A stretch of DNA of 58,307 nt from Ignavibacteriota bacterium (GTDB lineage: Bacteria > Bacteroidota > Ignavibacteria > UBA10030 > UBA6906): NCBI GenBank assembly GCA_003158475.1, contig PMJR01000116.1:245-58551 (forward strand), given 5' to 3'. The position numbers and the translations under genes are program-made. The notes beneath the pieces were generated by a model. That model saw nothing but the letters and a program-made list of their open reading frames with translations. It was not told the DNA's origin and did no database searches. Positions 27,888 to 48,914 of the stretch are shown here, piece by piece (position 1 is the first letter of the stretch; each line of letters opens with the position of its first letter).

Positions 27888-27976
27888 GAATACCTTTCGT
27901 TCTGGGAGGGAGGAATCAGCGCATGAGGAGTGTATTGTACGACGTTCCGCCGCAAGATTCAAGGAACTCTCCCGGC

Positions 27977-29670: not shown

Positions 29671-30931
29671 GGAGGAGCCACCTCCTCTTCTCGAGTATCA
29701 CGTTCACTTCACGGTCGAGCGCCCTGAGGCCGTCTTCCACCGTGTACTGGTCCATCGTGATGAGTTCGGCGTACTCGCGCACTTTCTGTGCGATCTGTTC
29801 CCACTCGGGGACCTTCGGTGTCGCCCTGACATGGTTGAGCTGCAGGAAGAACGCGCCGGCGAACCTGTTGCCGGCAAGCGCCGGGTCCCGCCAGGTTTCC
29901 ACGCGCGCGGGGAGGTCCCCTGTCAGCCTGTAGAACTCGAGCTGCTGCTCAGGTTCCGAGAGGTATTCTATCAGGCTCCAGACGGCCGCCTTGTGCTTCG
30001 ACTGGCGGAACATCACGAGGCTCGATCCCCCGGCGAGCGACAGTCCGATGCCCCCATCCGGGCCGGGGAGCGGAGCCGTCATCCAGACCCCCTGAAGCGA
30101 GTCGGGGAGCCTGTTCATGAATTCCCCGATATACCAGGGGCCGGTGATATACATGGCGAAGAAACCTTCGGCGAACGCCTGGTACACGCTCACGATCTGC
30201 GCCGTCTTTACCGGTGCCCAGCCGTTCTTGAAGAATGTATAAAAGGCGTGCATGGCGGCGGTGAACTCCGGACCGCTGAAATCCCCCAGCGTGTTGTTTT
30301 CCTTCAGGAGGGAGGAGCCCTTCTGAAGCCCCAGTATCACCGGGGGGGCCCACTCGTTGTTTGTCGAAAAGAAGTTGGCGTAGCTCCCCGGAAACCGGCT
30401 CTGCATTTTCGCCGAACAATCGAACCACTCCTCCCATGATCCCGGCGGCTGTGCGTTCCCGGCCGCGGCAAGAAGGTCGGATCTGTAGAAGAGAACGCGC
30501 GTATCGACATACCAGGGAACACCGTACAGGAGCGAGTCCATGACATTGGTATCCCAGATCCCGGGGAAGTAGGAGGATTCGTGCACCGTTTTCGAGGCGG
30601 CGACCCACGGGGAGAGGTTGTCGATCGTGTTCAATGTCCTGAATTCCGGAATCCAGGTGTTCCCGATCTGGCACATATCGGGCAATGACTCCCCCGCGAA
30701 CGCCGTCAGGAGCTTTTCGTGCGCGGCATTCCATGGGATGATCTGGACCCTGACGTCAATATCGGGATGCCGCTTGTTGAAGGCCGGCATCAGCTTTGCC
30801 ACATGCTCCCCCTCCGCCCCCAGCGCCCAGAACGTGATACGGGTCCGGCCGTCCCCGGCGCCCGTACAGCCCGCGAACGCCGCAAGGAGCGGGAGTGTAA
30901 AGAAAAAAAGCCGGACCGGAGATCTGCTCAT
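29660..30931 (-). CDS. Sugar ABC transporter substrate-binding lipoprotein
   Basis: This 423-residue protein has a lipoprotein signal ending LLAAFAGC (Cys near residue 21). A family-1 extracellular solute-binding fold starts RITFWALGAEGEHVAKLMPAFNKRHPDIDVRVQIIPW and includes the SBP_bac_1 hinge-region pattern. It would capture oligosaccharides in the periplasm for the two permeases. ATG 30931 is chosen because the lipobox follows it directly and it overlaps the GH2 stop (ATGA); a longer in-frame reading would start inside the GH2 gene. Confidence 0.9.
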   Translation of the reverse strand: MSRSPVRLFFFTLPLLAAFAGCTGAGDGRTRITFWALGAEGEHVAKLMPAFNKRHPDIDVRVQIIPWNAAHEKLLTAFAGESLPDMCQIGNTWIPEFRTLNTIDNLSPWVAASKTVHESSYFPGIWDTNVMDSLLYGVPWYVDTRVLFYRSDLLAAAGNAQPPGSWEEWFDCSAKMQSRFPGSYANFFSTNNEWAPPVILGLQKGSSLLKENNTLGDFSGPEFTAAMHAFYTFFKNGWAPVKTAQIVSVYQAFAEGFFAMYITGPWYIGEFMNRLPDSLQGVWMTAPLPGPDGGIGLSLAGGSSLVMFRQSKHKAAVWSLIEYLSEPEQQLEFYRLTGDLPARVETWRDPALAGNRFAGAFFLQLNHVRATPKVPEWEQIAQKVREYAELITMDQYTVEDGLRALDREVNVILEKRRWLLHGR

Positions 30932-33573
30932 GTCGTTCGCCCCCCCGGGAGAAATGCCGTTACGAGATTGAGCATGTACTGGGCCGCCACCGGGTCGATC
31001 CTCCGGGAAAAGAGGTCCTCCTGTTCGCCGCTCATCAGAAGTCGCCCTCGTGTCTGAATCCTGGAGACGACGATGCACCCCTCTCCGGCACGAATGAGCA
31101 TCACCGCTGCCTGGGCGAGATTCAGACCGCACATTGCGAGGGTCTCCGCCGGCACGTCGGCGCGTACGGTGTGCTCCGAGACCATCTCCCCCCCGAGCGC
31201 GCCGTTGAACATCCTGAGATGATCGGCACTGATGTTTCTCCAGAGGGGATGGGAGACATCCGCCGGGAAAACGTAGGAATCGTATCCCCCTTTTTCGGCA
31301 TCTGCGCGCCGCTCGATCGTGAGGCTCACATCCCTTATAAGGGGGAGCGTCTCCCTCTGCCGGTTGCCGAACTCCGGCTCGAGCAGAATCAGTGCAGCAC
31401 CTTTTCTGACCGCCTCGTCGATCGTCGCGATCTCACGGAGGTAGACGGGATCGCGCAGCATCCCTTCTCCAACCAGGATGAGGCCGCACCCGGCCGGATC
31501 CTCCTCCCCCAGGGGCGCGGTGAGGAGGCCGTGCCGGGCAAGGAAGCCGGTCACTTCACCGCGGGAATCCGTGATGAGGCAGCGAAGGCCGCGCGCGGCA
31601 TCCCCCCGCAACGCGCCGCAGACATATGTGATTTTTCTGCTCTCGGAGCAGCGTCCCTCAGCCCCGAAGAGTTCCGCAACGAGTTCGTACGGACCCGGAT
31701 CGTCCGGAAATTTCAGTTGCACCGGGACTATGCTGCACCCGGATGGACCCACGCGTACGTCCTCCCGGACCTCGTGTACCCACGTGTCCCGGTCGCGAAC
31801 AATTCCGTAGCGGAGCCTCCCCTCCCGCTCCACCGGGTCGTCATTGAACACGAACAGCCGGACGTTCCGGGTCTCCCCCGCCGCAAAATGTCTGTCCCAC
31901 ATCTCCACGCTCACCCCGAAAGGGGCGAACGCGTTCTTCAGCGTGCCGAGAAGAGGCTTGGGGACAAGGCGAGCGATGTCGCCGAGGAACCAGTGTCCTG
32001 TGGGTCCCGCATCATTGCTCAGATAGACAAACGGCTGAATTGCATCCACGCGCATCCGCCTGAAAAGCTCGATGATCTCCGACGCCAAAAATGACTGGTG
32101 TGCGATGAGTCCGTCCTTTGTCCATCCGCTCCCGAGCCATCGCTCGACGACATCCGCGGTGAGGACCGTCGGGTTGTTCTCCTTGTCGAGCCACCACCAG
32201 AGGAATTCGTTCAGCATTTTCGGACCCGGCGATTCCTCAATTTCACGGAGACCCCGGGTGAAGCCGAACTTCTCCGCGTTCAGGACCGGGCCCAGCGAGT
32301 AAATGTACGGATGCTCTTCGAGAAAATCGACGGATTCCCAGGGCCGGGACGGGTCGAGCTGCTTCATTTTCGGGACCACGACATCCTGGACGACCGGGTC
32401 GGAGCTCTCGTTCAGGGGATCCCATATGATGATGCTCGGGTGGTTCCAGTTGTCCTCGAGCCACCGGGTGAACTCCTTCGTGATCTGCGCCTCGGTACCC
32501 GTCGTGGTCCAGAACATCCATTCGTTCTGCAGGAGCATTCCCCCTTCATCCGCGATGTCGTACCACCTGCTGTACATCTGCCCGATGTGTGCGCGGAAGA
32601 AGTTAAAATTGTGCCGCTTCGGGATCTCGATGAGGAGCTTCCTCACCCAGTCAACGTCCCACGGGAGGAGCCCCCTGTCCGCGTCGGAGAGAAACCGGTG
32701 GAAGGCGATGTTCCCTCCCTTCAGGAATATCCGCTTGCCGTTCAGGAAGAATCCCCCTTCCTGCACGCGGAACTCCCTCATGCCGAACCTCGTCACCAGC
32801 GTGTCCACGACGTCCCCTTCCACGACGACCTCGACGAAATGTTCATAGAGAAACGGACGATCCGGGCTCCAGGGAAAAAGAGGGTCGACGGTGTGTATGA
32901 ACGCATGGACGCTCTCCCCCGCCGCAGCCGTTTCGGAGACGATCTCCTGGACGCTCCCGACAGGATGGCCGGATATGTGTTCGCGGAGACGCGAGACGAC
33001 TTTCAAAGGCACGCGTGAGGGGGCGGAGTTGTGAAGCGTCACGATGACTTCCGCCGTGGATTCCCGGTTCCGGGGAATCACCTGGACAAGCGCAACGCGG
33101 GGATTCCCGGCAAGTATGAGTGTCACATCCCCCCAGATACCGGGGATAAACGTCTGACGCTCCTGATCCCTGCCGACCGCACTTTCAGGGGGAAGAGTTT
33201 CTTTGAGCCCGACACGTACGGTGAGCTCGTTCGGACCGTCATACCGGAGGTACGGCGCGGCATCATACTCCTGCGAGGTATAACAGGCGATGTCTCCCCC
33301 CAGGAGGCTTCCGTTCAACCAGACGGAGGTTCCGAACATCGCCTGGTCGATCCGGATCGTCGCGGTCCGGGTGGGGGAAGCGGAGTCGACCCGGAAAGAG
33401 AGGTGGTACCAGTGGTAGGAAAAGGAGAGCCAGTCATACGACGGGGCGGCACAATCCACAAGCGAGGGGACGGGGATATTCGAACGCCACTCTCCCAGCG
33501 GGGCTTCGGCGGTCCCGGGAGCGATGTCCCAGAGGCCGTTCAGAGGCTGAACATATCGGGAACCCGTCGGCAT
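30928..33573 (-). CDS. GH2-family glycoside hydrolase (cytoplasmic, divergent)
   Basis: This 881-residue enzyme has no signal peptide. The GH2 order is clear: a sugar-binding jelly roll (FSYHWYHLSFRV ... GTSVWLNGSLLGGD), an immunoglobulin-like domain, then a TIM barrel with GKRIFLKGGN, IIIWDPLNESSD (acid/base Glu in NES) and MLNEFLWWW (likely nucleophile Glu). Residues ~650-880 form an extra GATase-like domain unusual for short GH2 enzymes. The WDPLNES form differs from the WSLGNES of LacZ, so beta-galactosidase, beta-mannosidase or another beta-glycosidase activity cannot be fixed. The start at 33573 shares a base with the chaperone stop (TGATG) and has AGGTG 5 nt upstream. Confidence 0.78.
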   Translation of the reverse strand: MPTGSRYVQPLNGLWDIAPGTAEAPLGEWRSNIPVPSLVDCAAPSYDWLSFSYHWYHLSFRVDSASPTRTATIRIDQAMFGTSVWLNGSLLGGDIACYTSQEYDAAPYLRYDGPNELTVRVGLKETLPPESAVGRDQERQTFIPGIWGDVTLILAGNPRVALVQVIPRNRESTAEVIVTLHNSAPSRVPLKVVSRLREHISGHPVGSVQEIVSETAAAGESVHAFIHTVDPLFPWSPDRPFLYEHFVEVVVEGDVVDTLVTRFGMREFRVQEGGFFLNGKRIFLKGGNIAFHRFLSDADRGLLPWDVDWVRKLLIEIPKRHNFNFFRAHIGQMYSRWYDIADEGGMLLQNEWMFWTTTGTEAQITKEFTRWLEDNWNHPSIIIWDPLNESSDPVVQDVVVPKMKQLDPSRPWESVDFLEEHPYIYSLGPVLNAEKFGFTRGLREIEESPGPKMLNEFLWWWLDKENNPTVLTADVVERWLGSGWTKDGLIAHQSFLASEIIELFRRMRVDAIQPFVYLSNDAGPTGHWFLGDIARLVPKPLLGTLKNAFAPFGVSVEMWDRHFAAGETRNVRLFVFNDDPVEREGRLRYGIVRDRDTWVHEVREDVRVGPSGCSIVPVQLKFPDDPGPYELVAELFGAEGRCSESRKITYVCGALRGDAARGLRCLITDSRGEVTGFLARHGLLTAPLGEEDPAGCGLILVGEGMLRDPVYLREIATIDEAVRKGAALILLEPEFGNRQRETLPLIRDVSLTIERRADAEKGGYDSYVFPADVSHPLWRNISADHLRMFNGALGGEMVSEHTVRADVPAETLAMCGLNLAQAAVMLIRAGEGCIVVSRIQTRGRLLMSGEQEDLFSRRIDPVAAQYMLNLVTAFLPGGRTT

Positions 33574-35426
33574 CATGGCACCTGATGTTTCGCCCGGAGG
33601 TATTCCCGGACCCAGCCCCATTCAGGCTTCAACACGGGGGCGGCGTTCATCATCCCACCGAACCCAATGAGACGCCGGGTAAACATATTGTGCCGGGAAA
33701 TATCGACCTTCTGCAGCCTGCCGTAGTACATCTTCACGCCGTACTTTTGCGCCAGACCGGCAATGAAACCGTCGATCGCATGTCGGCGCTTCTCGTAGCG
33801 AATTCTGGGACGAATGAGCCTTCGCAATGAATCGAGCGTGATTCCCCCATCGCCGGCCGTTCCACGCCTGGCGAGAACTCTGAAGACGGAATATCCCCCC
33901 TTGACAGCGACCGGCCCGATCAGCCTGCCCGTATCCGCCGCGAGAGCCCGTATGCCAAGTTCAGGGTACGAACGGACATGAAAGAAACCTGATTCCCCGC
34001 CTCGACCTGACCAGCCCGGCCGCCGTGATATCCTCCGCGCCAGGTCCGCCATGTCGGCACCGCCGGTCAACCGATCCACGCACTGAAGAGCTTCTGAGAG
34101 GCTGTCGGTCAGAATCTCCCGCACGTCAACTTCGTACGAAGGGTCGATCCGCCTGCCGTTCTCAATCAACGCTTCCATTTCATCCTCTTCACCCGGTTCG
34201 TCGCCCGGTATGCTCTGTTCCAGCATCAGTGCGCGCCAGTTATCACTCCACGCCGCAAGATCGTGCACCACCGACGGGGAATTCTGCAGGTGTCGCCTGT
34301 ACCCCTCACGGGCGAGGAGTTCCTCTTCGACAATTCTCTTCACGCTCCCGTTGAGGACAGAAAGAAATATGTTCCTTCCAAGGGAAGGGGAGGAGAAAGG
34401 CTCAATCCGGAACGCCTGGATCGCCGTGCCCAGGCTGAACGGGCCGCCGGGCAAAGAGACCAGCTCGCGCCCGAGATCCGGGCGCAAATCCGATTCGAGA
34501 ACGTCGATTTCTTCAGGGGCGAGAAGGAATCTCCCCTGGCTCCTGTGCGCGTCGGAGTCGGACATGATGATCGCATATATCGATCTGGCAAGGAGCCCAA
34601 GCAGATGCCTGTCCGCCACTCCTTTCTGCGGGCTGAGAACGGAACGCATGAATTCTCTCCCCCTGAGACGGGCTTTTCGCGACCGCAGGATGTCTCTTAC
34701 AGAGGAGAGCTGCTTTGCAACATCCTGTTGCGCATACCGGGGATTCGTTTGCCCTTCGACAAGGAGGAGCACGACCCAGCCGAGGTTTTCCGAATAGTAC
34801 GGAGCGGACACGGGGTGAGCCGGGCCCAGCGCATAAGCGTGATCTTCAAGTGATTCGTCTGCAATCCCGAATTCCACCGTCACGGTGTCCCGGGAGAGAA
34901 ATCCCTCCCCGGATCCCGGAGGAGCGACACTGTCCGGAGTCGCAATTGCATGTATTTTCTCCGACAGTTCCTGACCGGTGAGCTCCGAGGAGCAGCGGAG
35001 GACGACAACCCGGAGAAGTAGTGCATACTTCCTCACCCCGGCCTCCATTTCACCGGGGGAGACGCCCACGCTGTCGGCAACTTCCCTCCTGTACAGCTCA
35101 TCTCTGACAAACTCCCGCTCGAGGCCCCCCAGCCGAAGGAGCATGAGCGTGTCAAACCCGATCCCGCGCTCTGCAGCCTCGCTCGCGAGCAACCGTTCCG
35201 CGACGAGCGATTCGAGAGCCTGCACTCTTGAACTGTCAAATGTCCGGAGGCGCTCTTTTCCCGCCCAGGGCATGAGTTCGATCCGTTCGAAAAGATCCCC
35301 GGCAGTGATGATGCCCGCCCCCACCTCGGCGAGCGTATCGTCAGGGATGTGAGAAGAATTCTGAGCAGGAGAGCTGAGACCACAGAGTGAAAGGATGAGA
35401 AGTATCTGCACCGGGCGGGGGGGCAT
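33573..35426 (-). CDS. SurA/PpiC-like peptidyl-prolyl isomerase
   Basis: This 617-residue exported protein has a short signal-like N-terminus (PVQILLILSLCGLSSPAQ). Residues ~45-120 resemble the N-terminal chaperone region of SurA/PrsA proteins. A parvulin-type domain lies near ~440-535 (VDVREILTDS, then FFHVRSYPELGIRAL, ending GGYSVFRVLARRG). Such proteins help fold secreted or outer-membrane proteins in the periplasm. It sits 4 bp after a glycoamylase gene and is coupled to GH2, so it may serve the exported enzymes, TonB receptor or PorV-like protein of this locus. The ATG at 35426 directly precedes the signal; an earlier in-frame ATG adds 16 residues. Isomerase activity is not certain because the parvulin domain is divergent. 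Confidence 0.65.
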   Translation of the reverse strand: MPPRPVQILLILSLCGLSSPAQNSSHIPDDTLAEVGAGIITAGDLFERIELMPWAGKERLRTFDSSRVQALESLVAERLLASEAAERGIGFDTLMLLRLGGLEREFVRDELYRREVADSVGVSPGEMEAGVRKYALLLRVVVLRCSSELTGQELSEKIHAIATPDSVAPPGSGEGFLSRDTVTVEFGIADESLEDHAYALGPAHPVSAPYYSENLGWVVLLLVEGQTNPRYAQQDVAKQLSSVRDILRSRKARLRGREFMRSVLSPQKGVADRHLLGLLARSIYAIIMSDSDAHRSQGRFLLAPEEIDVLESDLRPDLGRELVSLPGGPFSLGTAIQAFRIEPFSSPSLGRNIFLSVLNGSVKRIVEEELLAREGYRRHLQNSPSVVHDLAAWSDNWRALMLEQSIPGDEPGEEDEMEALIENGRRIDPSYEVDVREILTDSLSEALQCVDRLTGGADMADLARRISRRPGWSGRGGESGFFHVRSYPELGIRALAADTGRLIGPVAVKGGYSVFRVLARRGTAGDGGITLDSLRRLIRPRIRYEKRRHAIDGFIAGLAQKYGVKMYYGRLQKVDISRHNMFTRRLIGFGGMMNAAPVLKPEWGWVREYLRAKHQVP

Positions 35427-35430
35427 GGGC

Positions 35431-36840
35431 TCAGTGCTCCTCCAGCCAGCCGCCGGTGAAGCCGGCCCGCTCAAGTCCCCGGACGACGTACGGGTTCTTC
35501 TTCATGACATTCCAGACGAAGCCGTTGCGGAAGTTCTCTATCATAAGCACGAGCGGGCCCTGGTCGATCCCCAGATAGTCCCCGTCAAACCATCCACGGG
35601 GACCCGTCTCAGGAGTGAGATATGTCGGATTGAATGAATCGACAAATCCGCATTCCCTCCAGACGCGTTCGCCGAACCGATTTCTCATTCCCTTAAGGCA
35701 GGGAATCGCAATCTCCGGAGCAAAGGGGAGTGAACCCCCTGCGGCGGACGGAGAGAGCGTCCCGTCGTCGTTTGTCCAGTCGACAGATACACCGCGCGCA
35801 GCATACGATTGAAATACCCGCGTGATCCCCTCCACGGCGAACGAGGTATCACGAGGGCCGTCACAGGCCGAGAAGCCCCAGATCGAATCCGCATAATCAC
35901 GGTACCTGCGCGGGTTGGTCACTGCGTAAGCGCGCTGGGCATAGGTCGCACGACGGGAGTTCTCGAAATAGTCGATTCCTTTCGACCTCATGTATGCGTC
36001 CTGAATACCCCTGAAATCGATCCAACAATGCGGGAATTGATGGCCGAACAAGGGACCGAAGCTCACGAATTCCTCTCCTTCGAATTCGGCCCAGACATAC
36101 CTTGAGGTCCAGTGGTTCCAGACCGCCGGAGGAACAGGAAAGGTCGGAGAGCCCAGTGCGAGCAGATACAGGAGCATGGCCTCGTTGTAACCACGCCAGG
36201 TCATCCTGTGAAAGCCTGTCTCCGGCTCCCAGCCGAGGTGGATCCCTTCTTCATTTCCCATCGCCCACCGCCAATCGACGCGCCTGAAGAGGGAATCCGC
36301 CGCCATCCTTATTTCTTTCTCATCACCTGACCCGCGGTCGAAATACGACTGGCAGAACAGGACCCCGGCCATGAGGAGGGCCGTGTCCATCGTCGAGAGT
36401 TCGCAGTTCCACGTCCTGAGACCCGATTTCCTCCCCAGGAAATGGTAGAAGAAGCCGTGGTAACCCGTCGTGCCGGCTGATGCCGGCCCCTGCGGGAGCG
36501 CGATCAGCAGCCTGAGCGTTGAGAGCGTACGCCGCGCGGCTTCGCCTCGCGCAATCATGTTCCGTTCGGCGGCAACAGGATAGGCCGTCAGGGCGAACCC
36601 CATTGCACCGACGCTCGCGGGGGACTGCGACGGAAATCGGTCGGGTGTCAGCCCTGTGGCCGGATCAGTTGCGGTGAGGAAGAAAAGCAGCGTGCGCGAT
36701 TGCAGTGTATCCAGAAAGGGATCCCATGGGGGGAGGGGAACGCCGGAGGATCCTTCCCCTCGGCCCGCAGGTCCACCGCACCGGACGATCGGGAGGAGAA
36801 GAGCGAGAAGAAGAATTGTGATCAGAGGCCTCTTTATCAT
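35431..36840 (-). CDS. Glycoamylase-domain (PF10091, GH144-like) exported enzyme
   Basis: This 469-residue protein has a hydrophobic N-terminal signal followed by Cys (LLLPIVRCGG), so it may be a lipoprotein, though the lipobox is imperfect. The rest is one alpha/alpha-barrel domain with GTTGYHGFFYHFLGRKSGLRTWNCELSTMDTALLMAG, GWEPETGFHRMTWRGYNEAMLLYLLALGSP, FGHQFPHCWIDFRG and DGDYLGIDQGPLVLMIENFRNG. This pattern belongs to the Pfam Glycoamylase family, which includes the GH144 endo-beta-1,2-glucanases and sophorose-releasing enzymes. It is paralogous to the gene 28 bp upstream (36869-39343). Beta-1,2-glucanase activity is an inference. Confidence 0.78.
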   Translation of the reverse strand: MIKRPLITILLLALLLPIVRCGGPAGRGEGSSGVPLPPWDPFLDTLQSRTLLFFLTATDPATGLTPDRFPSQSPASVGAMGFALTAYPVAAERNMIARGEAARRTLSTLRLLIALPQGPASAGTTGYHGFFYHFLGRKSGLRTWNCELSTMDTALLMAGVLFCQSYFDRGSGDEKEIRMAADSLFRRVDWRWAMGNEEGIHLGWEPETGFHRMTWRGYNEAMLLYLLALGSPTFPVPPAVWNHWTSRYVWAEFEGEEFVSFGPLFGHQFPHCWIDFRGIQDAYMRSKGIDYFENSRRATYAQRAYAVTNPRRYRDYADSIWGFSACDGPRDTSFAVEGITRVFQSYAARGVSVDWTNDDGTLSPSAAGGSLPFAPEIAIPCLKGMRNRFGERVWRECGFVDSFNPTYLTPETGPRGWFDGDYLGIDQGPLVLMIENFRNGFVWNVMKKNPYVVRGLERAGFTGGWLEEH

Positions 36841-36868
36841 CCGTCAGTCTGTTCTTTGAGTCGCCGCG

Positions 36869-39343
36869 TCATTTGAGCAGAACGATCTTCCTGGCGCCGG
36901 TGAAACCCCCGGCAGTCATTCTGCAATAGTACACGCCGCTGGCAAAGGAATCCGCATGCCATTCGACCGTGTGATCGCCAGGCCCGAGAAAGCCTTCCAC
37001 GAGCGTTGCGACTTCCCGTCCCAGGACATCGTACACTTTCAATGTCGCATGCACAGGGACAGAGATGTGAAAACCGATGATTGTGGACGGATTGAACGGG
37101 TTGGGGAAATTCTGGAATAACGCCGGCCCCGCCAATATATTGGCGGAGGGCCGGACACTCGCCGTAACAGGCATGAAGCCGGCCCGCTCGAGGCCGAGCT
37201 GGATCACCGGGCTCTTCATAAACCTGTTCCAGACCGATTGCGTTCTGTAGTTCTCGACCATAAGCACAATCGGACCCTCATCGATTCCGATCTCATCCGG
37301 TCCCCACCATGACGCCTGCAGATTGAATGCATCGCGGAACCCATAAGGGCTCCAGATGCTTGTGCGGTACTGGGAGTACATGTACCTGAGTGCGGGGAGA
37401 GACACTTCGCTCGCGAAAGGGAGCGATCCGGCCGCGGCTGTGGGTGCGATCGTGCCGTCGTCGTTCTGTGCCGGCGGGGCCCCGCGGGCGGCGTAGCCGT
37501 TGGGAGGCGGACCGTCGCAGGCAGTCAATCCCCAGAGATTCTGGCCATAACTGGCGAAGTGCCCGGGGTTCGCGACACAGTACTGGCGCTGTGCAAGTGT
37601 CGCCCGTCGCGTGTTTTCGGCATACGTGATCCCCATCCCCCTCATGTACGCATCGGCAATATTTCTGAAATCCACCCAGCAATGTGAGTACTGGTGCCCG
37701 AACAGGGGGGGGAAACCGACGAATGTATAACCCGCATACGTCTCCTGCGTGTAGCCCGACACCCAGCTGTTCCAGACTGAGGCCGGAAGCTGACTGTTCA
37801 CCGCACCGAGGCCAAGGAGGTTGAGCACCATCCCTTCATTGTAGCCGATCCACCTCGCGGGTATGAAGCCCGATCCATGGTTGCCGGCAGCGTCCGGATA
37901 CCATCCCATTGTCAACGATGACCCGCCGTCCGTCATCCAGATCCAGTCCACACGATTGAATATCGAATCGGCCAGTGCCCGTATCCCTGTTTCGACCGAG
38001 TCTGTCTCCGTGAAGTATTGCCCGGCATCGAGAATTCCGGCAAGAAGGAGGCCGGTGTCAATCGAGGAGAGCTCAGTGTCCCCCGATCGGGTCGCGGTGT
38101 TCATATCGAGGAAATGGTAGAAAAAGCCCTTGTATCCCAGGACACCCGCCGAGGCACTGCTCTGTGGCCCGTGCCAGAACGTCCCCAGCGTCGCCAGGAC
38201 GCGCGCACGTCCTTCGAGGCGCGTGATCCACCCGTGATCGACGCCGATACAGATCGAACTGAGCCCGAAGCCGACCGAGGCGATGCTCGAAGCGGATGTG
38301 GAGGAGCTCCGGTCCTTTATCAGGCCGTTGTCGGGATTTGATTCGTACCAGAAGAAGTCGAATGATGCGTGCTCCAGAAAATCAAGAAAGTCATCATCCG
38401 TCGCGAACGCGTGAGGAACCACTGTCACGGTGTCGGAATTCGGGCTTTCCACCGAATTCGTATTTACCGCCCGAACCACGTACGAATATGCGGGTCCGTT
38501 CGTGACACCCAGAGCCGAAAAGCCCTGCGATGTCAGCGTTCCCACGCTGACCTTCGCATACGGGCCGGAAGGCGAATAGGCGCTGTACACCGCGTAGCCA
38601 AGCAGGTTAACGTCGCGGTTCCTGTCCCAGTGGAGCATGACACACTGATCGCCGGCATAAGCGACGAGACGTTGGACCGCCGATGGACGTGTCGTGTCCG
38701 GAGGTCCCGCGGCAATGATCCTGATATAATCGATCCACACCGTATGTACGGCGCTGTCAGCCGCTCCCTGGGCAAAGTTGATGTCCTTGAGAACCGCCAG
38801 GTTGAACCCGTTGTAGGGAGAGAATGCAGTGAGCGGGATGCTCACCCGTTGCCATGTCGTTGTGTCACCGTCAATCCCGGACGGAAGGTATTGCGCAAGA
38901 TTGACGGCATGCGCACTCAGATTGGCATTATCCTCGAGATCAGCCATGGGAAGCAGGGCGGCTGCGACAGGGGCGGGAGCGTTCACATAAAACACGACAC
39001 TGTCATAGCCGGCGGCGTTGCGCGGCGTCCAGGCCGGACTTGCCACGAAGATCCGCCACGCGCCCCCCGCAATAGATCTCCACTGCACCAGCCCGCTGTT
39101 CGCTCCGGAGTACGCCTGGCCATTCATAACAGGAAGCTTATCCCTCGGCATGTTCGGTCCTGCCAGCGTCAGCGAACTACTTCCGGATGAAAACCCGTAT
39201 GAGGCGTCATAGTAGGCTCCGCCCCCGGGATTCTCATCGAATATCACCAGGTCGGGTTTGGTCTGTCCGGTCGCCGGGGCGACTGAGCAGCAGAGGGCAA
39301 CCAACAGACATGATGCACGTGCGCGGCAGATCGTGAGTCGCAT
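36869..39343 (-). CDS. T9SS-secreted multidomain glycoamylase (PF10091, GH144-like) enzyme
   Basis: This 824-residue protein has a signal peptide (CLLVALCCSVAPATGQT). A CBM-like jelly roll (~30-190, ending VWIDYIRII), a fibronectin-III domain (~200-300) and a glycoamylase domain (~315-715) follow. The catalytic domain carries YKGFFYHFLDMNTATRSGDTELSSIDTGLLLAG, FGHQYSHCWVDFRN and PDEIGIDEGPIVLMVENYR, matching the smaller paralogue. The C-terminus is a type IX sorting domain (FQNFPNPFNPSTIIGF ... VYDVLGREVATLVEG ... SGVYYCRMTAGG ... IVLLK), so the enzyme is exported to the cell surface. It probably makes the first cuts in an extracellular polysaccharide; beta-1,2-glucan is the leading candidate from family membership. 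Confidence 0.82.
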   Translation of the reverse strand: MRLTICRARASCLLVALCCSVAPATGQTKPDLVIFDENPGGGAYYDASYGFSSGSSSLTLAGPNMPRDKLPVMNGQAYSGANSGLVQWRSIAGGAWRIFVASPAWTPRNAAGYDSVVFYVNAPAPVAAALLPMADLEDNANLSAHAVNLAQYLPSGIDGDTTTWQRVSIPLTAFSPYNGFNLAVLKDINFAQGAADSAVHTVWIDYIRIIAAGPPDTTRPSAVQRLVAYAGDQCVMLHWDRNRDVNLLGYAVYSAYSPSGPYAKVSVGTLTSQGFSALGVTNGPAYSYVVRAVNTNSVESPNSDTVTVVPHAFATDDDFLDFLEHASFDFFWYESNPDNGLIKDRSSSTSASSIASVGFGLSSICIGVDHGWITRLEGRARVLATLGTFWHGPQSSASAGVLGYKGFFYHFLDMNTATRSGDTELSSIDTGLLLAGILDAGQYFTETDSVETGIRALADSIFNRVDWIWMTDGGSSLTMGWYPDAAGNHGSGFIPARWIGYNEGMVLNLLGLGAVNSQLPASVWNSWVSGYTQETYAGYTFVGFPPLFGHQYSHCWVDFRNIADAYMRGMGITYAENTRRATLAQRQYCVANPGHFASYGQNLWGLTACDGPPPNGYAARGAPPAQNDDGTIAPTAAAGSLPFASEVSLPALRYMYSQYRTSIWSPYGFRDAFNLQASWWGPDEIGIDEGPIVLMVENYRTQSVWNRFMKSPVIQLGLERAGFMPVTASVRPSANILAGPALFQNFPNPFNPSTIIGFHISVPVHATLKVYDVLGREVATLVEGFLGPGDHTVEWHADSFASGVYYCRMTAGGFTGARKIVLLK

Positions 39344-39351
39344 GTCATCTT

Positions 39352-41769
39352 TCAGGAGGATTTCACGTCTTTTCCCATAACCACTTCCACCCTATGCTCT
39401 GAGCCTGGCTGAAACACCGGAAGGAGCCTTGTGCCATCGCGGCAACGCCCGTCGTGCGGCTGGCCGTCGAGCAGGATCGAGGCCACGCCTGTCTGGACGC
39501 CCTGAGGGTTTCTGACGAGGATGTGATACACAGCACCGCGGAAGAGCCGGCGTACGCTGAACTGTTTCCAGTGGGGTGGAATGCACGGGTCGATTGCCAA
39601 CCCGTCGAATGCCGGGCGGACTCCGAGGATGTTTTCCACTCCGACCCGGAGGAGCCACGCAGCTGAACCGGTATACCAGGACCAGCCACCACGGCCGTAG
39701 AAGGCGGAGTCAGGTCCTTCGATATTTCCCGGAGTAACATATGGTTCAGCGCAGTACTCGTCGGGATGCATGCCCCGGCGGATCGGGTTGAGTCTCGAAT
39801 ACATCTCGAACGCCAGCGTGCCCCGCCGTAAAACCGACGCCGCAATTATCGCCCACGTCGCAGCGTGTGTATAGACCCCCCCGTTTTCCCTCGTGCCGGC
39901 CGCGTAGCGGGTCAGGTATCCGATGTACCTGTCAATCGTCCGGTACGCAGGATGGAGAAGCACCGGACCGGCCTTAAAGAGAAGCCTGCTCTCAACGGCG
40001 TCCATCACTTTTTCGGCCCTTCCGGGGTCTGCGACGCCGTTGATCACGGCCCAGGTCTGGGCATTGAGGAATATCTGCCCTTCTGTATTCTCATGACTGC
40101 CGATCTTCTCACCCGAATCCTTTGTCGCCCGGAAATACCACCCACCGTCCCATGCTTCCGTATTGAGCACGGTGCGGAGCCGGTCCGCTTTCTCCCGGTA
40201 AAGCGCCGCGCGGGGGTCATCCCTTTCCCGTTCCGCAACTCCGGCAAAGTCCTTCAGTATGCCGTAGAGAAAGTGCCCGAGCCAGACTGACTCTCCCTTC
40301 ATCTCAAGTCCGACGGCACTCAATCCGTCGTTCCAATCCCCCTGCCCGATCAGGGGAAGACCCCGGGCGCTGGAGCGACCGAGCGAGTGATCGATGGCAC
40401 GAGCCGCGTGATCGTACAGCGACGAAGAAGCATTCCCGTCGAGGAATGGTTCTTCAGATTGCAGGACGCCGAAATCCGCCGTCTCCCGGAGATAGTTCAT
40501 CAGCACGAACGGGAGCCAGAGGAGATTGTCGGAGATATTGTTGCGGAGGCCGATCTCCGAAATCGGATGCCACCAGTGGTAGACGGAGCCGTCCATGAAT
40601 TGGTGCCGTGCATGAAGCTGCAATTGCCGTTTGGTCTGTTCCGGATCGATCGGGAGGAATACCTGGCTGTCCTGAAGCTGATCGCGGAATCCGAATGCGC
40701 CGCCGGTCTGATAGTACGCAGTGCGAGCCCAGAGCCGGCCGGATATCGCCTGATATTTCAGCCAGACATTGGTCATGATGTCCATGGCCCTGTCCGGCGT
40801 GGAGACCTCGAGGGTTCCCAGAAGCGACTTCCAGCGGCGGCGGACTTCCTGAAATGCCGTTTCCACCCCCTTCGCGGAGCGGTATTTCCGGATGATCTCC
40901 TCCGCCTCGGATCGTGAATCGGCGGCACCGACAGTGAAGATCACAACGCTTTCTTCCCCGCCGTCCAGCGCCAGGTCGACAGCGAGGCTGCCGACCGGAT
41001 CGAGCCAATTCCCCGACCGCTTTCTGAGCTTGCCTTCCCTGACAGCCGCCGGCATACGCAGGCTTCCGTACATCCCGAGAAATGACTCCTTGTCCGTGTC
41101 AAACGCCACGGGCCTCCGGCTGCTCGAGTGGAAGGCGACGTAAGGCCATTCGGTATTCCAGTGGCCCCGGTCCCCCGGGACATCCCAGAGCCGTTTGGTC
41201 GCAAGAACCGCACGGAGGTCGGCGTCATACGCCGTCTCAATAAACGATTTGTGAAACTCGCGGTGCCAGTCGGGTGCCGCCCCGAGTCCCCACTCAAGAT
41301 ACGTGAAGAGCCGGAGCTTCCGGGAGTTCCGGCCCGTGTTCCTTACCTTCAGCCGCCAGAGCTCAACGGGTTCATCGTTGGGAACGAATATCAACAATTC
41401 AGTCTCAATCCCCCCGGTGCGGGAGCTGATGACGGTGTAACCGATGCCATGGCGGCATTCGTAGCGATCCGGTTTCCCGCACACGGGTTTCCAGCCCGCA
41501 GACCAGACGCGTCCCTTTTCATCCCGGATGTAAATGTACTTCCCCCACTCATCACGCACAAGGTCCTGTTCCCACCGTGTAATGCGATTAAGCTGGGCGT
41601 GGGTCCTCCAGCTATATCCGCTCCCCGTTTGCGACACAGTAACGCCGTAGTCGCCGTTGCTGATGACGTTGATCCAGGGTCGCGGGGTTTCGGGCGTGGT
41701 GATGATATACTCGGTTCCGTCCGGCGAGAAATACCCGTACTTTGTACGAAACTGGCCGGGTGATTTCAT
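39352..41769 (-). CDS. GH94-family glycoside phosphorylase
   Basis: This 805-residue cytoplasmic protein starts MKSPGQFRTKYGYFSPDGTEYIITTPETPRPWINVISNGDYG, very like cellobiose phosphorylases. It carries QGDWNDGLSAVGLEMKGESVWLG, where the Asp of GDWND is the catalytic acid of GH94, and YRTIDRYIGYLTRYAAGTRENGGVYTHAATWAI. GH94 enzymes cleave beta-glucosides with phosphate, giving a sugar 1-phosphate and saving ATP. The length matches cellobiose or chitobiose phosphorylases rather than the ~1100-residue sophoro-oligosaccharide enzymes. ATG 41769 fits the family N-terminus, although no Shine-Dalgarno is seen; longer in-frame readings run into the PorV-like gene. Confidence 0.85.
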   Translation of the reverse strand: MKSPGQFRTKYGYFSPDGTEYIITTPETPRPWINVISNGDYGVTVSQTGSGYSWRTHAQLNRITRWEQDLVRDEWGKYIYIRDEKGRVWSAGWKPVCGKPDRYECRHGIGYTVISSRTGGIETELLIFVPNDEPVELWRLKVRNTGRNSRKLRLFTYLEWGLGAAPDWHREFHKSFIETAYDADLRAVLATKRLWDVPGDRGHWNTEWPYVAFHSSSRRPVAFDTDKESFLGMYGSLRMPAAVREGKLRKRSGNWLDPVGSLAVDLALDGGEESVVIFTVGAADSRSEAEEIIRKYRSAKGVETAFQEVRRRWKSLLGTLEVSTPDRAMDIMTNVWLKYQAISGRLWARTAYYQTGGAFGFRDQLQDSQVFLPIDPEQTKRQLQLHARHQFMDGSVYHWWHPISEIGLRNNISDNLLWLPFVLMNYLRETADFGVLQSEEPFLDGNASSSLYDHAARAIDHSLGRSSARGLPLIGQGDWNDGLSAVGLEMKGESVWLGHFLYGILKDFAGVAERERDDPRAALYREKADRLRTVLNTEAWDGGWYFRATKDSGEKIGSHENTEGQIFLNAQTWAVINGVADPGRAEKVMDAVESRLLFKAGPVLLHPAYRTIDRYIGYLTRYAAGTRENGGVYTHAATWAIIAASVLRRGTLAFEMYSRLNPIRRGMHPDEYCAEPYVTPGNIEGPDSAFYGRGGWSWYTGSAAWLLRVGVENILGVRPAFDGLAIDPCIPPHWKQFSVRRLFRGAVYHILVRNPQGVQTGVASILLDGQPHDGRCRDGTRLLPVFQPGSEHRVEVVMGKDVKSS

Positions 41770-41801: not shown

Positions 41802-42824
41802 TCAGAATGCAAATGCGAGCGTGACGCGCTGGACTCCGCCGAGCCTTCCGAAGGATGCCCAGGCGTAGTCGAGTCGGAGGTCGTAGCCGAGGCCGTCCCA
41901 CTGCACTCCTCCGCCGGCGGTCCACCCCACCTCGGAGTCCTTCAGGAACAGGCTCTGGTAGCCTGCGCGCAGGAAGAGAATTCTCTGGAAAGCCCATTCC
42001 GCCCCCATGTCCACGCTCTCCGCTTCGTCGCTCGGATGGAGGGCGTCAACGGCGAGCGTGACCGTATTGGCCCCGTCGAGGACGACGGGGTAGCCGAGGC
42101 CGACCCGAAACACGATAGGGAGCGTGAAGTAATCGGTGTTGAGCGTGGCAGGAAGCGTGCTGTTCGCCCCATAGCGTGTCGGATCCTCGTTGTAAGAGAC
42201 CCGCAAATCCGTCCCGTCGAACCGCCCCTTTGTACCGAAGTTAACGAGACTTGCGCCGATGCGGAGCCCGTCGGGGGAGAGCTGGTAGATTGTCCCGATG
42301 TTCACGCCGAAAACCGCCACCGAGCTGTGCCAGATCCTTTCGCTGACGTAGTTGACCTGTATGCCGAACGAGAACCTGTCGGTCACCGCCATCCCCCAAC
42401 CGAGGCCGATCAGGAGATCGCTGACATTGAACTGTTCCCCGGTGCCCAATGGCTGCTCCACCGTCGTGACCGGGATGTCGCCCGAGCTCAGATTTGTCAC
42501 CGCAAGAGCAGCGGTGCCGATCGAGCCGATGCGGACTGCTGCGATCGCATTGCTGACGGTGATGCCCGCCAGCCACTGGTTGTATGTAAACTGAAAGTCC
42601 GATTTTTCCAGCGCCCCCAGCGCTCCGGGGTTATAGAAAGCCGCCACAGCCTCGGCCGACGATGTCACGCCGGCACCTCCCATGGCAGCAGAGCGTGCTC
42701 CGGGATCAATCAGCGTGAACTGGCCGATCGTCGTCCCCGTTTTGGACTGCGCGTGGAGTCCTGCGGCCGCAAGACAGAGGAAGAGAACGAGACCCTTCAT
42801 GAGATTCTGAACCGGGGGCTTCAT
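41802..42824 (-). CDS. PorV/PorQ-family outer-membrane protein
   Basis: This 340-residue protein has a signal peptide (LVLFLCLAAAGLHAQ) followed by GQFTLIDPGARSAAMGGAGVTSSAEAVAAFYNPGAL, the hallmark opening of PorV/PorQ and FadL-like barrels. Alternating beta-strands continue to an aromatic C-terminal end (VTLAFAF). PorV carries T9SS substrates from the translocon to the attachment complex. Encoded next to a TonB receptor and T9SS cargo, this copy may be a locus-dedicated shuttle rather than the general PorV. The start overlaps the stop of the preceding gene by 4 nt. Confidence 0.75.
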   Translation of the reverse strand: MKPPVQNLMKGLVLFLCLAAAGLHAQSKTGTTIGQFTLIDPGARSAAMGGAGVTSSAEAVAAFYNPGALGALEKSDFQFTYNQWLAGITVSNAIAAVRIGSIGTAALAVTNLSSGDIPVTTVEQPLGTGEQFNVSDLLIGLGWGMAVTDRFSFGIQVNYVSERIWHSSVAVFGVNIGTIYQLSPDGLRIGASLVNFGTKGRFDGTDLRVSYNEDPTRYGANSTLPATLNTDYFTLPIVFRVGLGYPVVLDGANTVTLAVDALHPSDEAESVDMGAEWAFQRILFLRAGYQSLFLKDSEVGWTAGGGVQWDGLGYDLRLDYAWASFGRLGGVQRVTLAFAF

Positions 42825-45800
42825 TTTATGATCGCGAATTTTCCGACATATGAGTCGAAACCCACGGCTTCGACATGAAAAATGTAGAGCCCGGGCGCCA
42901 CATCGAGGTTGTCCTTCGTCCGGAGATCCCAGACCGCATATCCGCTCGTCGAGCCGTCCTGGCGGAGTGTCTGGACCAGATCGCCGCGGACGGTGTAGAT
43001 GCGCACTGTCGCATTGACAGGAAGGCCCCGGAATTCCATCCGGCGATCGCCGCGCCCCGTCGTCGCAAACTTCTGGGGCTCAAAGCTCGCGGCCCCGGCA
43101 TAGGGGTTCGGTACCACGTAGGGTGCGGTCCTGTACTGTTGCTTTGCGAGGCCGGGGTTGATCAACTGCCCCTTCGTCGTGAACGCGTACACGTCGTCAT
43201 TCGCCACCGGGCTCGTAATCCGTGCCGTGTACACGTCGCCCGGTGCCGGCGGAACAACGGACGATGCGGGGGTGGGTGTGTTGAATCTGACCCGCCATGT
43301 CGGCCAGGCATAGAATCGGGCGGTATCCCATGGGAAGTAGGAGTACACGTCAATCCATTCATCGGCAAGTGAGAGCGTGCTGTCCTTGCTCGCAACGTCT
43401 TCATGGAGCGCGCATTTCAGGGGAACGGGCCCCGACGGTGTGTTTGCGACGGCCCTAAACTTCACGGGGACAGAGGGGGCGCCGACAACAAAGAGCGAAG
43501 TGTCAATCGGGGTAGCGGAGAATGTCAGCGTGAAATCATAGGGATACCCCGGCCTTGAAACATCGATCGAGTCACGGCTGAGATTTGAAATCGTCAGCGG
43601 CGTATGCGCTGCGTTGCCGAGGGCGAATCCACTGTTCACAGAGTCGAACGAAGCGACATCCGGGGTCGAGACCACGGCGAGTATCCCGTCCCCCACAGGG
43701 CCGCGCCCCTCCCCGTGGAAGTCCGCCCCGAAGGAGTATACCGCTTTCCCGGAAAGGCTGTCGGCGAGCTCATACCTGACGGCGTGCCTGCGACCGGGCG
43801 ATGCTCCCGTGAAACGGAGCAGCAATGTCGTGTTATCGGGGACAGACTTCGAATCGAGTATCGTGAGGCCGATCGCGGCGCTCCCCGTCCCTGCGATGTG
43901 CCTCACCTGTGTCGCCGTGGCCTGCGTATAGCCGGGGACCGCCGGTTCAGGCCTGACGTCCACGACATTGACAGGGAGGACGGTCCCCCCCCGGAGCGTG
44001 CGGGAGACCGTTATCGCATTCTCAGAGGGAAAGAACCCGAGCGAGTCGTCGCCGTGGCCGTATGCACAGACCGCGTAGAAATACTCCTGGCCGTTCTTCA
44101 CCGTCGTGTCGGTGAACGAATGCATGAGACCCGAATCCGTCCCCAGCCAGTAGTGCACTCCCTCGATCTGTTGGTTGGAGAATCCCTTGATGCCGTTCAC
44201 AAGGTCGAACTGGGCCATGGGGACCCCGTTCCCGAACTTGTCTGTCCCGAGTGCGTTGGTTATCACCCGGGGATCACGGAATTCGGGATCTGTCGAGCGG
44301 TACACCCTGTAGCCTTCGAAGTCGTTCTTGCGTGTCACCGGGTCGATCCCCCGCTCCGAGACGTCCGTCCACATCACGCGGACATAGTGATCGCCGGTTT
44401 CAGCAGTCGCTGTCGGGATGGGGGGAGGGACGGCAAACTGGTAGTTCGCATTGTAAATCTGCTGGACTGTCCTGACCACTGTCTTCAGTTCGCTGAGATC
44501 GCCCCCGTAGGCCAGGGCGAGTGAGAATCTCTCGTGGTCGCCCGGGGGAAGCCGGAACGTGCCGGAGGCGAACAGAAAAGCGATGTTATAATTCAGAACG
44601 ACAGGCACGTCGAACCGGTTCGCCGGGACCGGATCGGTCCACTTCTGGTACAGGACGGGGGGCCATATGCCGAAGAAGACGATGGCATCGACAGGGTCCG
44701 CCGGAGAAGGGCCTTTGATCCTGTTCATCTGAAACCCCGTCAGACCAATCTGATCGGATTCATCCTTGTCCGTCTGATCAAAGTCCGGCTCGCCGGCTGT
44801 CGGGATGCCGTCTCCTTCACCCAGGTCGTGCGTCCCCGGAACGCCATCCGCTCCAAGATCGTCGTACGTGACATCCCAGTTCATGTTCTCGTCGCCGGTC
44901 CACCAGATCCCCTCCTTGAATGCGGGCCTGTTCTCCAGTTTCCCGTAGAATGCCTCGAAATTCGCCATGTTGTAGCGCGCGTTCACATAGGCGCGGATGT
45001 TGTCCTGTCCCACGATTTTCGTTCCCGGCCCGCTGTCGCGCCTCTCGTCCGTGATGCCGTCGCTGTCATTGTCGATGAGGTCGTAGGGATTGCCCGGCGT
45101 CTCCATATACGCATACCCCAGGTATCCGGTCGGTGCACACGTGCTCGTAAGATCCACGCCGTGTCCGTACTTGTCCCACGTATAAACAAGATTCAGGCCT
45201 GTCGAGCGGTCAAAAAAGGCGTTGTCGTCATCGGACTCCGCGACACCGTCGCACGAGATTGCCGAACCGCCGACTCCCGAGTCCATGTAGAGGCCGAAGA
45301 TGATGTTGTCATGGTAGTCTGTCGTCCCCTCGTTGGTAATATCATAGTGCCAGAAGATGACATTTGTCGCCTGCGGGTTCGCCCACTGGAAGCCCCGCAC
45401 CTCGACGCGGAGCCCGAGCCCGCGCCGCGTGGCATCGCGGGAGTCGGGGAAAAAATGATCCCACCTGTCGTAGTAATCATCATCCATCACGAAGAAGCTC
45501 TCCTGGTCGGCGTTCGGCCTCTTACCGAAATATCCGTTCCAGCTCCCGGGCCACCCCGGATCGTTGGGATCGTTCGCTTTGTCGGGCCAGCTTTCCGGCC
45601 AGGTCCTCGAGTCGCTGCTGATTGCAATAGAGCGCCCTCTGTTGATTGAAGGGTCCGCCTGGAAATAGCCGGGGCGCGGCTCAAAGCGCATGACTTTCCC
45701 GGAATGAGGGCTGTTGTCCTGCCGCTCGCGGTACCCTGTTTCCATGATGAATGCCGGCGAGACGCCATCCATGACGCTTGCAAGGACGAACGGGGTTATA

Positions 45801-46084
45801 CCGTCCGCGTAGTTGAGCCCGGAGCCTTTGGGCACCTCCACGGAATGAAAGACGGAGAGGTCGACGTGTATGGGATCGGGGGGATAGTCGCCGACCATCC
45901 CGTAATTCCAGAAGATTGTCCGGATATTCCCCGCATCGTGCGTCCCGGACCGTTCGGCGTCGTTGCTGCCGCGCTGACTCTTGGGGACAACCGGCTGCAG
46001 GGAATTTTGCGCCGGAGCCCGGAAGTGCGTCAGGCCCGCAAGCACGATGAGCGCGAGCAAACTTCGTATCTCTGTCTTCATCAT
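42821..46084 (-). CDS. Large exported protein with FlgD-like/T9SS-type C-terminus
   Basis: This 1087-residue protein has a signal peptide (LLALIVLAGLTHFRAPAQ). The body contains aromatic- and Asp-rich segments (WNGYFGKRPNADQESFFVMDDDYYDRWDHFF; DNDSDGITDERRDSGPG, calcium-binding-like) and an FN3-like part (YVRVMWTDVSERGIDPVTRKNDFEGYRVYRS). The tail (VVPNPYAGAASFE, ATVRIYTVRGDLVQTLR, LDVAPGLYIFHVEA, KFAIIK) resembles FlgD-Ig/type IX sorting domains. It is a surface or secreted protein of unknown binding function. Its position between a TonB receptor and a PorV-like gene suggests a three-part surface complex. ATG 46084 has GGGA 8 nt upstream. Confidence 0.75.
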   Translation of the reverse strand: MMKTEIRSLLALIVLAGLTHFRAPAQNSLQPVVPKSQRGSNDAERSGTHDAGNIRTIFWNYGMVGDYPPDPIHVDLSVFHSVEVPKGSGLNYADGITPFVLASVMDGVSPAFIMETGYRERQDNSPHSGKVMRFEPRPGYFQADPSINRGRSIAISSDSRTWPESWPDKANDPNDPGWPGSWNGYFGKRPNADQESFFVMDDDYYDRWDHFFPDSRDATRRGLGLRVEVRGFQWANPQATNVIFWHYDITNEGTTDYHDNIIFGLYMDSGVGGSAISCDGVAESDDDNAFFDRSTGLNLVYTWDKYGHGVDLTSTCAPTGYLGYAYMETPGNPYDLIDNDSDGITDERRDSGPGTKIVGQDNIRAYVNARYNMANFEAFYGKLENRPAFKEGIWWTGDENMNWDVTYDDLGADGVPGTHDLGEGDGIPTAGEPDFDQTDKDESDQIGLTGFQMNRIKGPSPADPVDAIVFFGIWPPVLYQKWTDPVPANRFDVPVVLNYNIAFLFASGTFRLPPGDHERFSLALAYGGDLSELKTVVRTVQQIYNANYQFAVPPPIPTATAETGDHYVRVMWTDVSERGIDPVTRKNDFEGYRVYRSTDPEFRDPRVITNALGTDKFGNGVPMAQFDLVNGIKGFSNQQIEGVHYWLGTDSGLMHSFTDTTVKNGQEYFYAVCAYGHGDDSLGFFPSENAITVSRTLRGGTVLPVNVVDVRPEPAVPGYTQATATQVRHIAGTGSAAIGLTILDSKSVPDNTTLLLRFTGASPGRRHAVRYELADSLSGKAVYSFGADFHGEGRGPVGDGILAVVSTPDVASFDSVNSGFALGNAAHTPLTISNLSRDSIDVSRPGYPYDFTLTFSATPIDTSLFVVGAPSVPVKFRAVANTPSGPVPLKCALHEDVASKDSTLSLADEWIDVYSYFPWDTARFYAWPTWRVRFNTPTPASSVVPPAPGDVYTARITSPVANDDVYAFTTKGQLINPGLAKQQYRTAPYVVPNPYAGAASFEPQKFATTGRGDRRMEFRGLPVNATVRIYTVRGDLVQTLRQDGSTSGYAVWDLRTKDNLDVAPGLYIFHVEAVGFDSYVGKFAIIK

Positions 46085-46116
46085 GGAATCATCCCGCTCT
46101 TGCTTCATCAAGGATG

Positions 46117-48792: not shown

Positions 48793-48914
48793 GGAGAATC
48801 CTGAAGAAGATCGCACGTAGAATGAGGGGGGCTCTCGAGAGAGTGTGAATCACCAGGGAGCCTTTTACCGCTCTCCCGATCGCCCCGCCCCGTTACATGT
48901 ATGACGCACGAACC

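What the first reader, a model, noticed from the sequence alone, without database searches (positions are those of the whole stretch)
35431..41769. Enzyme set points to beta-1,2-glucan (sophoro-oligosaccharide) use
Two PF10091 glycoamylase-domain proteins stand next to a GH94 phosphorylase, with two GH3 beta-glucosidases downstream, one with PA14. Known: PF10091 includes GH144 endo-beta-1,2-glucanases and sophorose-releasing enzymes, some linked to GH3 genes, and GH94 includes sophoro-oligosaccharide phosphorylases. Against it, the GH94 protein is ~805 residues, the size of cellobiose phosphorylase. If beta-1,2-glucan is right, a short GH94 acting on sophorose or similar disaccharides would be new.
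Basis: partly seen in the sequence, partly recalled or inferred. Interest (0 to 1): 0.68.

Follow-up and report, generated by a model that had tools for sequence, protein, structure and literature searches.

The report
Beta-1,2-glucan utilisation locus with short phosphorylase
This stretch is a gene set, probably under one sugar-responsive repressor, that very likely lets a Bacteroidota-like bacterium cut up, import and burn beta-1,2-linked glucans; such clusters are known, but its short phosphorylase belongs to a widespread enzyme clade for which I found no reported assay.

Summary
In detail: two PF10091 proteins (35431-36840, 36869-39343) lie beside an 805-aa GH94 protein (39352-41769), and two GH3 genes lie downstream, one with a PA14 domain. 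Both PF10091 proteins match GH144 beta-1,2-glucanase XcSGL best (504 and 345 bits; model Z 55 for the second) and keep the clan's catalytic residues.

[quoted passage not shown] Its acceptor-site loop lacks the cellobiose-phosphorylase insert and Arg362, and carries Arg627 where the others have Lys. GH144-like genes lie nearby in 34 of 46 stand-alone GH94 loci, against 3 of 59 synthase loci and 0 of 5 other GH94 loci. A Lin1841-like ABC binding protein, a TonB receptor, and a LacI gene headed by two operator palindromes found nowhere else in the genome complete the locus.

Beta-1,2-glucan use is well supported by sequence, but not new in kind: an Ignavibacterium album cluster with the same core is published. 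Open: the minimal substrate (sophorose or longer) and whether the enzyme is a dimer. No activity was measured.

The parts
52046..52061 (.). perfect 16-bp palindrome ATGTAAGCGCTTACAT, LacI-type operator at the 5' end of the lacI ORF
   Evidence: with the next one the only two exact TGTAANCGNTTACA sites in the genome
52003..52018 (.). second palindrome ATGTAAACGTTTACAT, probable LacI operator; the annotated LacI start is probably too early
   Evidence: TGTAAACGTTTACA also lies beside the LacI gene in loci L049, L056, L064, L067, L069
50962..52047 (-). LacI-family regulator, probably first gene of the unit
   Evidence: Pfam LacI HTH at residues 31-76 and sugar-binding domain
48915..50858 (-). surface protein with CBM9-like domain and T9SS tail
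   Evidence: Pfam; conserved position in relatives
46117..48816 (-). TonB-dependent (SusC-like) outer-membrane receptor
   Evidence: Pfam; conserved position
42821..46111 (-). large secreted protein without Pfam match, conserved in the cluster
41802..42824 (-). PorV-like outer-membrane protein
   Evidence: Pfam PF19572
39352..41769 (-). stand-alone GH94 phosphorylase (805 aa, no signal peptide seen, proposed cytoplasmic); catalytic acid Asp481
   Evidence: Pfam, tree, residues, model
36869..39343 (-). GH144b: signal peptide, CBM30-like, FnIII, GH144 catalytic and T9SS sorting domains
35431..36840 (-). GH144a: exported endo-beta-1,2-glucanase homologue, closest to XcSGL
30928..33621 (-). divergent GH2 protein, recurrent in the cluster, function unknown
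   Evidence: Pfam, synteny
29660..31132 (-). ABC sugar-binding protein related to Lin1841 (beta-1,2-glucooligosaccharide binder)
   Evidence: PDB 5ysb 228 bits, 3uor 411 bits; next rows about 100 bits
28792..29670 (-). ABC permease, first
27977..28900 (-). ABC permease, second
25644..27962 (-). GH3 beta-glucosidase (BglX type), exported
24630..25607 (-). ROK-family sugar kinase
22124..24658 (-). GH3 beta-glucosidase with PA14 domain, exported

Best explanation
A LacI-controlled locus for using beta-1,2-glucan. Proposed flow: surface (T9SS) GH144b and exported GH144a cut linear or cyclic beta-1,2-glucan into sophoro-oligosaccharides; the TonB/SusC-like receptor brings these into the periplasm; exported GH3 enzymes trim some to glucose; the Lin1841-like ABC importer takes the rest into the cytoplasm; there the stand-alone GH94 enzyme phosphorolyses them from the non-reducing end, giving glucose 1-phosphate and a shortened chain. 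The GH94 enzyme appears to combine a synthase-like beta-1,2 acceptor site with a cellobiose-phosphorylase-like single-N-domain frame, and so probably works as a homodimer in which the partner's HREFHK helix closes the active site. Shown here: gene content, phylogeny, residue conservation, linkage. Inferred: every enzymatic step, compartments, dimer, regulation.
For: GH144 assignment by best match, model and catalytic residues (XcSGL specificity in PMC12102758). GH94 tree: stand-alone clade 1 change, SH-aLRT 93; synthase domains 100; both together against cellobiose/chitobiose phosphorylases and others 99. Acceptor-site loop Q-x-x-G-A-(F/Y)-G-(F/Y)-R-D-Q-L-Q-D shared with synthases and without the IGR/RTG insert; Arg627 in 100% of stand-alone and 96% of synthase rows (the remaining 4% is the truncated AtCGS reference), Lys in all 11 others; it corresponds to LpSOGP Arg916, which contacts sophorose. 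Pocket helix D-x-HREFHKxFxETE aligns with HPAFSKLFVQTE of synthase Ndom1 and is missing from Ndom2. Linkage to GH144-like ORFs: 34/46 stand-alone, 3/59 synthase, 0/5 other GH94 loci. Conserved gene order. Lin1841-like binding protein. Operators.
Against: No activity measured. The overall fold of the GH94 model is nearest to cellobiose phosphorylase (Z about 40, synthase 33, LpSOGP 32), and LpSOGP is only 13% identical. LpSOGP Arg907/Tyr141 have no clear equivalent here. The linkage counts come from related genomes, partly MAGs, and loci were chosen by GH94 similarity. Support for the stand-alone clade is from a quick search (93, no bootstrap). The model's low confidence around the active site has other possible causes, such as the shallow 15-sequence alignment. 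GH3 specificity cannot be read from sequence.
Confidence: 0.83

Rival explanations
1. The GH94 enzyme is a cellobiose (or other beta-1,4/beta-1,3 disaccharide) phosphorylase in a mixed beta-glucan locus.
For: Length of 805 aa, one N-domain, fold nearest to cellobiose phosphorylase; CBM30-like and CBM9-like modules occur in cellulolytic proteins.
Against: Tree separates it from cellobiose and chitobiose phosphorylases with support 99; Arg362 of CgCBP and the insert are absent and the Lys before the conserved Glu is Arg. The same genome has a separate GH94 gene that groups with the C. thermocellum enzyme (C77, support 100). No GH144-like ORF lies at the five other-GH94 loci examined.
Confidence: 0.08
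2. The GH94 enzyme is a sophorose (disaccharide) phosphorylase that takes glucose as acceptor, finishing the pathway without a cytoplasmic glucosidase.
For: Single-N-domain dimer-type frame is that of disaccharide phosphorylases; both GH3 enzymes look exported, leaving sophorose in the cytoplasm without an obvious GH3 hydrolase.
Against: The open +2 loop resembles the synthase, which acts on longer chains, and LpSOGP/LiSOGP need three or more units (PMC5309861, PMC3960220). The GH2 protein, for which no signal peptide was seen, could split sophorose.
Confidence: 0.27
3. The locus recycles the cell's own cyclic beta-1,2-glucan rather than scavenging others'.
For: The genome encodes a 3073-aa protein with PF10091 and GH94 domains, whose C-terminal 1300 aa match AtCGS at 980 bits.
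Against: TonB-type receptor, T9SS-exported enzyme and ABC importer fit scavenging; the synthase gene is on another contig, away from the locus. Both uses could hold.
Confidence: 0.12

Closest known systems
Ignavibacterium album SGL gene cluster (IALB_1177 to IALB_1187), PMC8861115
   Same: Two GH144 genes, a GH94 gene described as homologue of the synthase's C-terminal domain, TonB-dependent transporter, Lin1841-like ABC binding protein.
   Different: I. album has the GH35 transglycosylase IaSGT; the paper lists a putative GH3 gene in one passage and says no beta-glucosidase homologue in another. The window has GH2, two GH3, ROK and a GH42-like gene. I could not fetch IALB_1177, so its place in the clade is unverified.
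[quoted passage not shown]
   Same: Tree neighbour; same acceptor-loop sequence and Arg before the conserved Glu.
   Different: Not fused to glycosyltransferase and cyclisation domains; no Ndom1; pocket helix lies in its only N-domain.
1,2-beta-oligoglucan phosphorylase LiSOGP/LpSOGP
   Same: Same expected reaction; small residues in the +2 loop and the Arg916-Glu917 pair; gene beside GH3 and ABC genes in Listeria (PMC3960220, PMC5309861).
   Different: About 1100 aa, two N-domains, monomeric; only 13% identity to the window enzyme.
GH144 XcSGL (8xul) and BDI_3064 (5z06)
   Same: GH144a: 504 bits to XcSGL. GH144b: catalytic domain Z 55 to XcSGL and an extra N-terminal region as in BDI_3064.
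   Different: GH144b carries CBM30-like, FnIII and T9SS sorting domains; endo or exo action unknown.
Cellobiose phosphorylase (C. thermocellum, Cellulomonas)
   Same: Length, one N-domain, overall fold (Z about 40).
   Different: Acceptor-site insert with Arg362 and the Lys before the conserved Glu are absent.

Membership tests
GH144 (GH144a and GH144b) | PF10091 domain, closest to characterised GH144 rather than GH189 or GH192-194 | tested here: met
   XcSGL 504/345 bits, CpSGL 137/175 bits, PgSGL3 (GH194) 24/31 bits; GH144b model Z 55 XcSGL, 43.5 TiCGS, 36.7 PgSGL3
GH144 (GH144a and GH144b) | clan residues: general acid Glu, Phe, Tyr and the acidic residue in the ELSxxD region | tested here: met
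   GH144a E220, F265, Y346, D152; GH144b E503, F548, Y617, D429; equivalents of XcSGL E239, F286, Y367
GH144 (GH144a and GH144b) | hydrolysis of beta-1,2-glucan | not testable with these tools
   needs an assay
GH94 | N-terminal super-sandwich plus catalytic domain with catalytic Asp in WND | tested here: met
   PF06165, PF17167; Asp481 in W479-N480-D481, W-N-D in all 79 tree rows
Long SOGP (EC 2.4.1.333 type, Li/LpSOGP) | about 1100 aa with two N-domains | tested here: not met
   805 aa, one N-domain, no Ndom1-like match upstream of stand-alone genes
Long SOGP (EC 2.4.1.333 type, Li/LpSOGP) | Arg916 equivalent and small residues in the +2 loop | tested here: met
   Arg627; G357, A358
Long SOGP (EC 2.4.1.333 type, Li/LpSOGP) | Arg907-Tyr141 pair at subsite +1 | tested here: inconclusive
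Long SOGP (EC 2.4.1.333 type, Li/LpSOGP) | phosphorolysis of oligosaccharides of three or more units, not sophorose | not testable with these tools
   needs an assay
[quoted passage not shown]
   stand-alone ORF
Cellobiose phosphorylase | Arg362 loop and Lys before the conserved Glu at the acceptor site | tested here: not met
   G357 with no insert; Arg627
Known beta-1,2-glucan (SGL) gene clusters | GH144, beta-1,2 phosphorylase and Lin1841-like ABC importer together | tested here: met
   the phosphorylase's linkage specificity itself is inferred

The most novel reading that the evidence does not exclude
The stand-alone GH94 clade is an unassayed type of beta-1,2-glucan phosphorylase: a homodimer of one-N-domain subunits that uses the partner's HREFHK helix where the synthase uses its own Ndom1, and that may also split sophorose, so that sophoro-oligosaccharides go wholly to glucose 1-phosphate and one glucose.
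Probability: 0.3. Interest if true: 0.6.

Novelty: new member of a known kind. Interest (0 to 1): 0.42.

Why it matters
It gives a substrate prediction to a GH94 clade seen here in about a dozen phyla (by MAG title) and without a characterised member that I could find, with checkable residue markers (Arg627, the QxxGAFGFRDQLQD loop, the HREFHK helix) separating it from cellobiose phosphorylases of the same size. [quoted passage not shown]

Tried and rejected
The GH42-like gene (19899-22115) was tested as an IaSGT-like enzyme; it matches GH42 beta-galactosidases weakly (70 bits) and the cluster relatives do not carry it in the stretches read. NCBIfam gave no family for GH94, GH144a or GH42. LpSOGP did not align usefully by sequence (20.6 bits to the synthase), so its residues were mapped from the paper's text. 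Literature searches for a sophorose phosphorylase gave no paper; the library holds only part of the literature. A Foldseek/VIA second look cannot exclude other families.
Full report
Observation. The genes are as described. All lie on the minus strand with short gaps (32, 8 and 28 bp). The locus extends beyond the given coordinates. Upstream of GH94 are a PorV-like gene, a large secreted protein, a SusC-like TonB receptor, a CBM9/T9SS-tail protein and a LacI regulator. Downstream are a PpiC-like gene, a GH2 gene, an ABC binding protein with two permeases, GH3, ROK, GH3-PA14 and a GH42-like gene.

PF10091 proteins. GH144a's best solved relative is XcSGL (XCC2207, 8xul; 504 bits), and GH144b's catalytic domain has the same best hit (345 bits). 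XcSGL is a GH144 enzyme that acted on beta-1,2-glucan and on none of the other polysaccharides in the parts of the table I read (PMC12102758). The residues that define the clan (XcSGL E239, F286, Y367) and the acidic residue of the ELSxxD stretch are present in both. The GH144b model matches XcSGL at Z 55 (1.7 A over 408 residues), a CBM30 at Z 19.6 and FnIII domains at about 14, and carries a T9SS sorting domain. Whether GH144b is endo or, like BDI_3064, releases sophorose is open.

GH94 identity. By raw score the protein is about equally close to Agrobacterium cyclic glucan synthase (502 bits for the domain) and C. thermocellum cellobiose phosphorylase (472 bits), so I built a tree from 79 rows. 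The window protein lies in a group of 43 stand-alone proteins (support 93). Synthase domains form one group (100). Stand-alone plus synthase are split from cellobiose phosphorylase, chitobiose phosphorylase and other GH94 paralogues by a branch with support 99. The root is a drawing midpoint, so sister-group language is provisional. The genome also has a cellobiose-phosphorylase-like GH94 (C77) and a 3073-aa synthase-like protein (C95).

GH94 active site. In LpSOGP, Arg916 contacts sophorose at subsite +1, and small Gly/Ala residues open subsite +2 where cellobiose and chitobiose phosphorylases place an Arg (PMC5309861). Stand-alone and synthase enzymes share the loop QxxGA(F/Y)G(F/Y)RDQLQD without the insert, and have Arg before the conserved Glu (100% and 96%; the missing 4% is the truncated AtCGS reference); all 11 others have Lys. 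In the window these are G357, A358 and R627; the catalytic acid is D481.

Frame and dimer. Synthases carry two N-domains. Every stand-alone gene lacks the first one. The helix that lines the pocket in Ndom1 (HPAFSKLFVQTE) is missing from synthase Ndom2 but present in the only N-domain of stand-alone enzymes as HREFHKxFxET. Cellobiose phosphorylase is a dimer with the pocket at its interface, LpSOGP a monomer. I infer that the stand-alone enzyme is a dimer. The monomer model has pLDDT under 50 at 162-173, 354-361, 479-490 and 599-631, which are conserved active-site segments. That is compatible with a missing partner but also with a shallow alignment. Its overall fold is nearest to cellobiose phosphorylase.

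Linkage. The order CBM9-SusC-secreted protein-PorV-GH94-GH144b-GH144a-GH2-SBP-permeases recurs in relatives. With a GH144 profile, 34 of 46 stand-alone GH94 loci held a separate GH144-like ORF, against 3 of 59 synthase loci (Fisher p about 4e-14) and none of five other-GH94 loci. Several of the 12 exceptions are contigs that end near the GH94 gene. The p-value ignores relatedness and is only a guide. Linked loci span Bacteroidota/Ignavibacteriota, Neomarinimicrobiota, Planctomycetota, Acidobacteriota, Thermotogota, Bacillota and others by MAG title.

Transport and control. The binding protein scores 228 bits to Lin1841, a sophoro-oligosaccharide binder, and 411 bits to 3uor, with the next rows near 100. 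Two palindromes, ATGTAAGCGCTTACAT and ATGTAAACGTTTACAT, lie 43 bp apart at the head of the LacI gene. They are the only exact TGTAANCGNTTACA sites in the genome; chance expectation in the window is 0.04. TGTAAACGTTTACA also lies by LacI in several related loci. This motif is of a general LacI type and does not name the sugar.

Compartments. N-termini read by eye suggest exported GH144a, GH144b and both GH3 enzymes, and cytoplasmic GH94 and GH2. No signal-peptide program was run.

Novelty. PMC8861115 already reports an I. album cluster with the same core and states that its GH94 protein resembles the synthase's C-terminal domain and should release sophorose. The Brucella synthase domain has been shown to phosphorolyse beta-1,2-glucan (PMC3960220). 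What is added here is the clade's extent, its residue markers, the pocket-helix argument, the linkage counts and the operators. I found no assay of a stand-alone member, but the library searched is partial.

Noticed in passing
L038:5221-14439 (genome contig C95): A 3073-aa protein with PF10091 and GH94 domains, C-terminal 1300 aa matching AtCGS at 980 bits: the organism probably also makes cyclic beta-1,2-glucan.
   Followed up: partly
L042:2200-5562 (genome contig C76): A 1121-aa ORF weakly matching the GH94 catalytic model (36.6 bits), beside ABC sugar-transport genes, with no close solved relative (best 26.7 bits, chitobiose phosphorylase): a possible distant phosphorylase.
   Followed up: partly
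L125:2-1174, L147:12310-13689, L149:10-1416: GH144a-like genes near cyclic glucan synthase genes in Pseudoduganella, Ensifer and a Gemmatimonadetes MAG; in L125 also with the SBP and permeases.
   Followed up: no
L072:12388-13836, L078:2412-3860, L077:6927-8366, L076:12540-14645: ORFs weakly GH144-like directly behind stand-alone GH94; three tested carry PF10091 with DUF3131 (L077 not tested by Pfam), possibly another beta-1,2-glucanase-clan family.
   Followed up: partly
window 29660-31132: The binding protein's best solved match is 3uor (411 bits), deposited only as an ABC transporter sugar binding protein; the synteny suggests that protein too may bind beta-1,2-glucooligosaccharides.
   Followed up: no
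window 30928-33621: Divergent GH2 protein recurrent behind GH144a; candidate cytoplasmic sophorose-splitting enzyme.
   Followed up: no
window 52003-52061: LacI ORF start at 52047 is probably annotated too early, since both operator palindromes lie at or inside its 5' end and the HTH begins at residue 31.
   Followed up: partly
window 11635-17751: RND efflux set (AcrB-type pump, membrane-fusion protein, outer-membrane channel) with a MarR regulator, unrelated to the locus.
   Followed up: no
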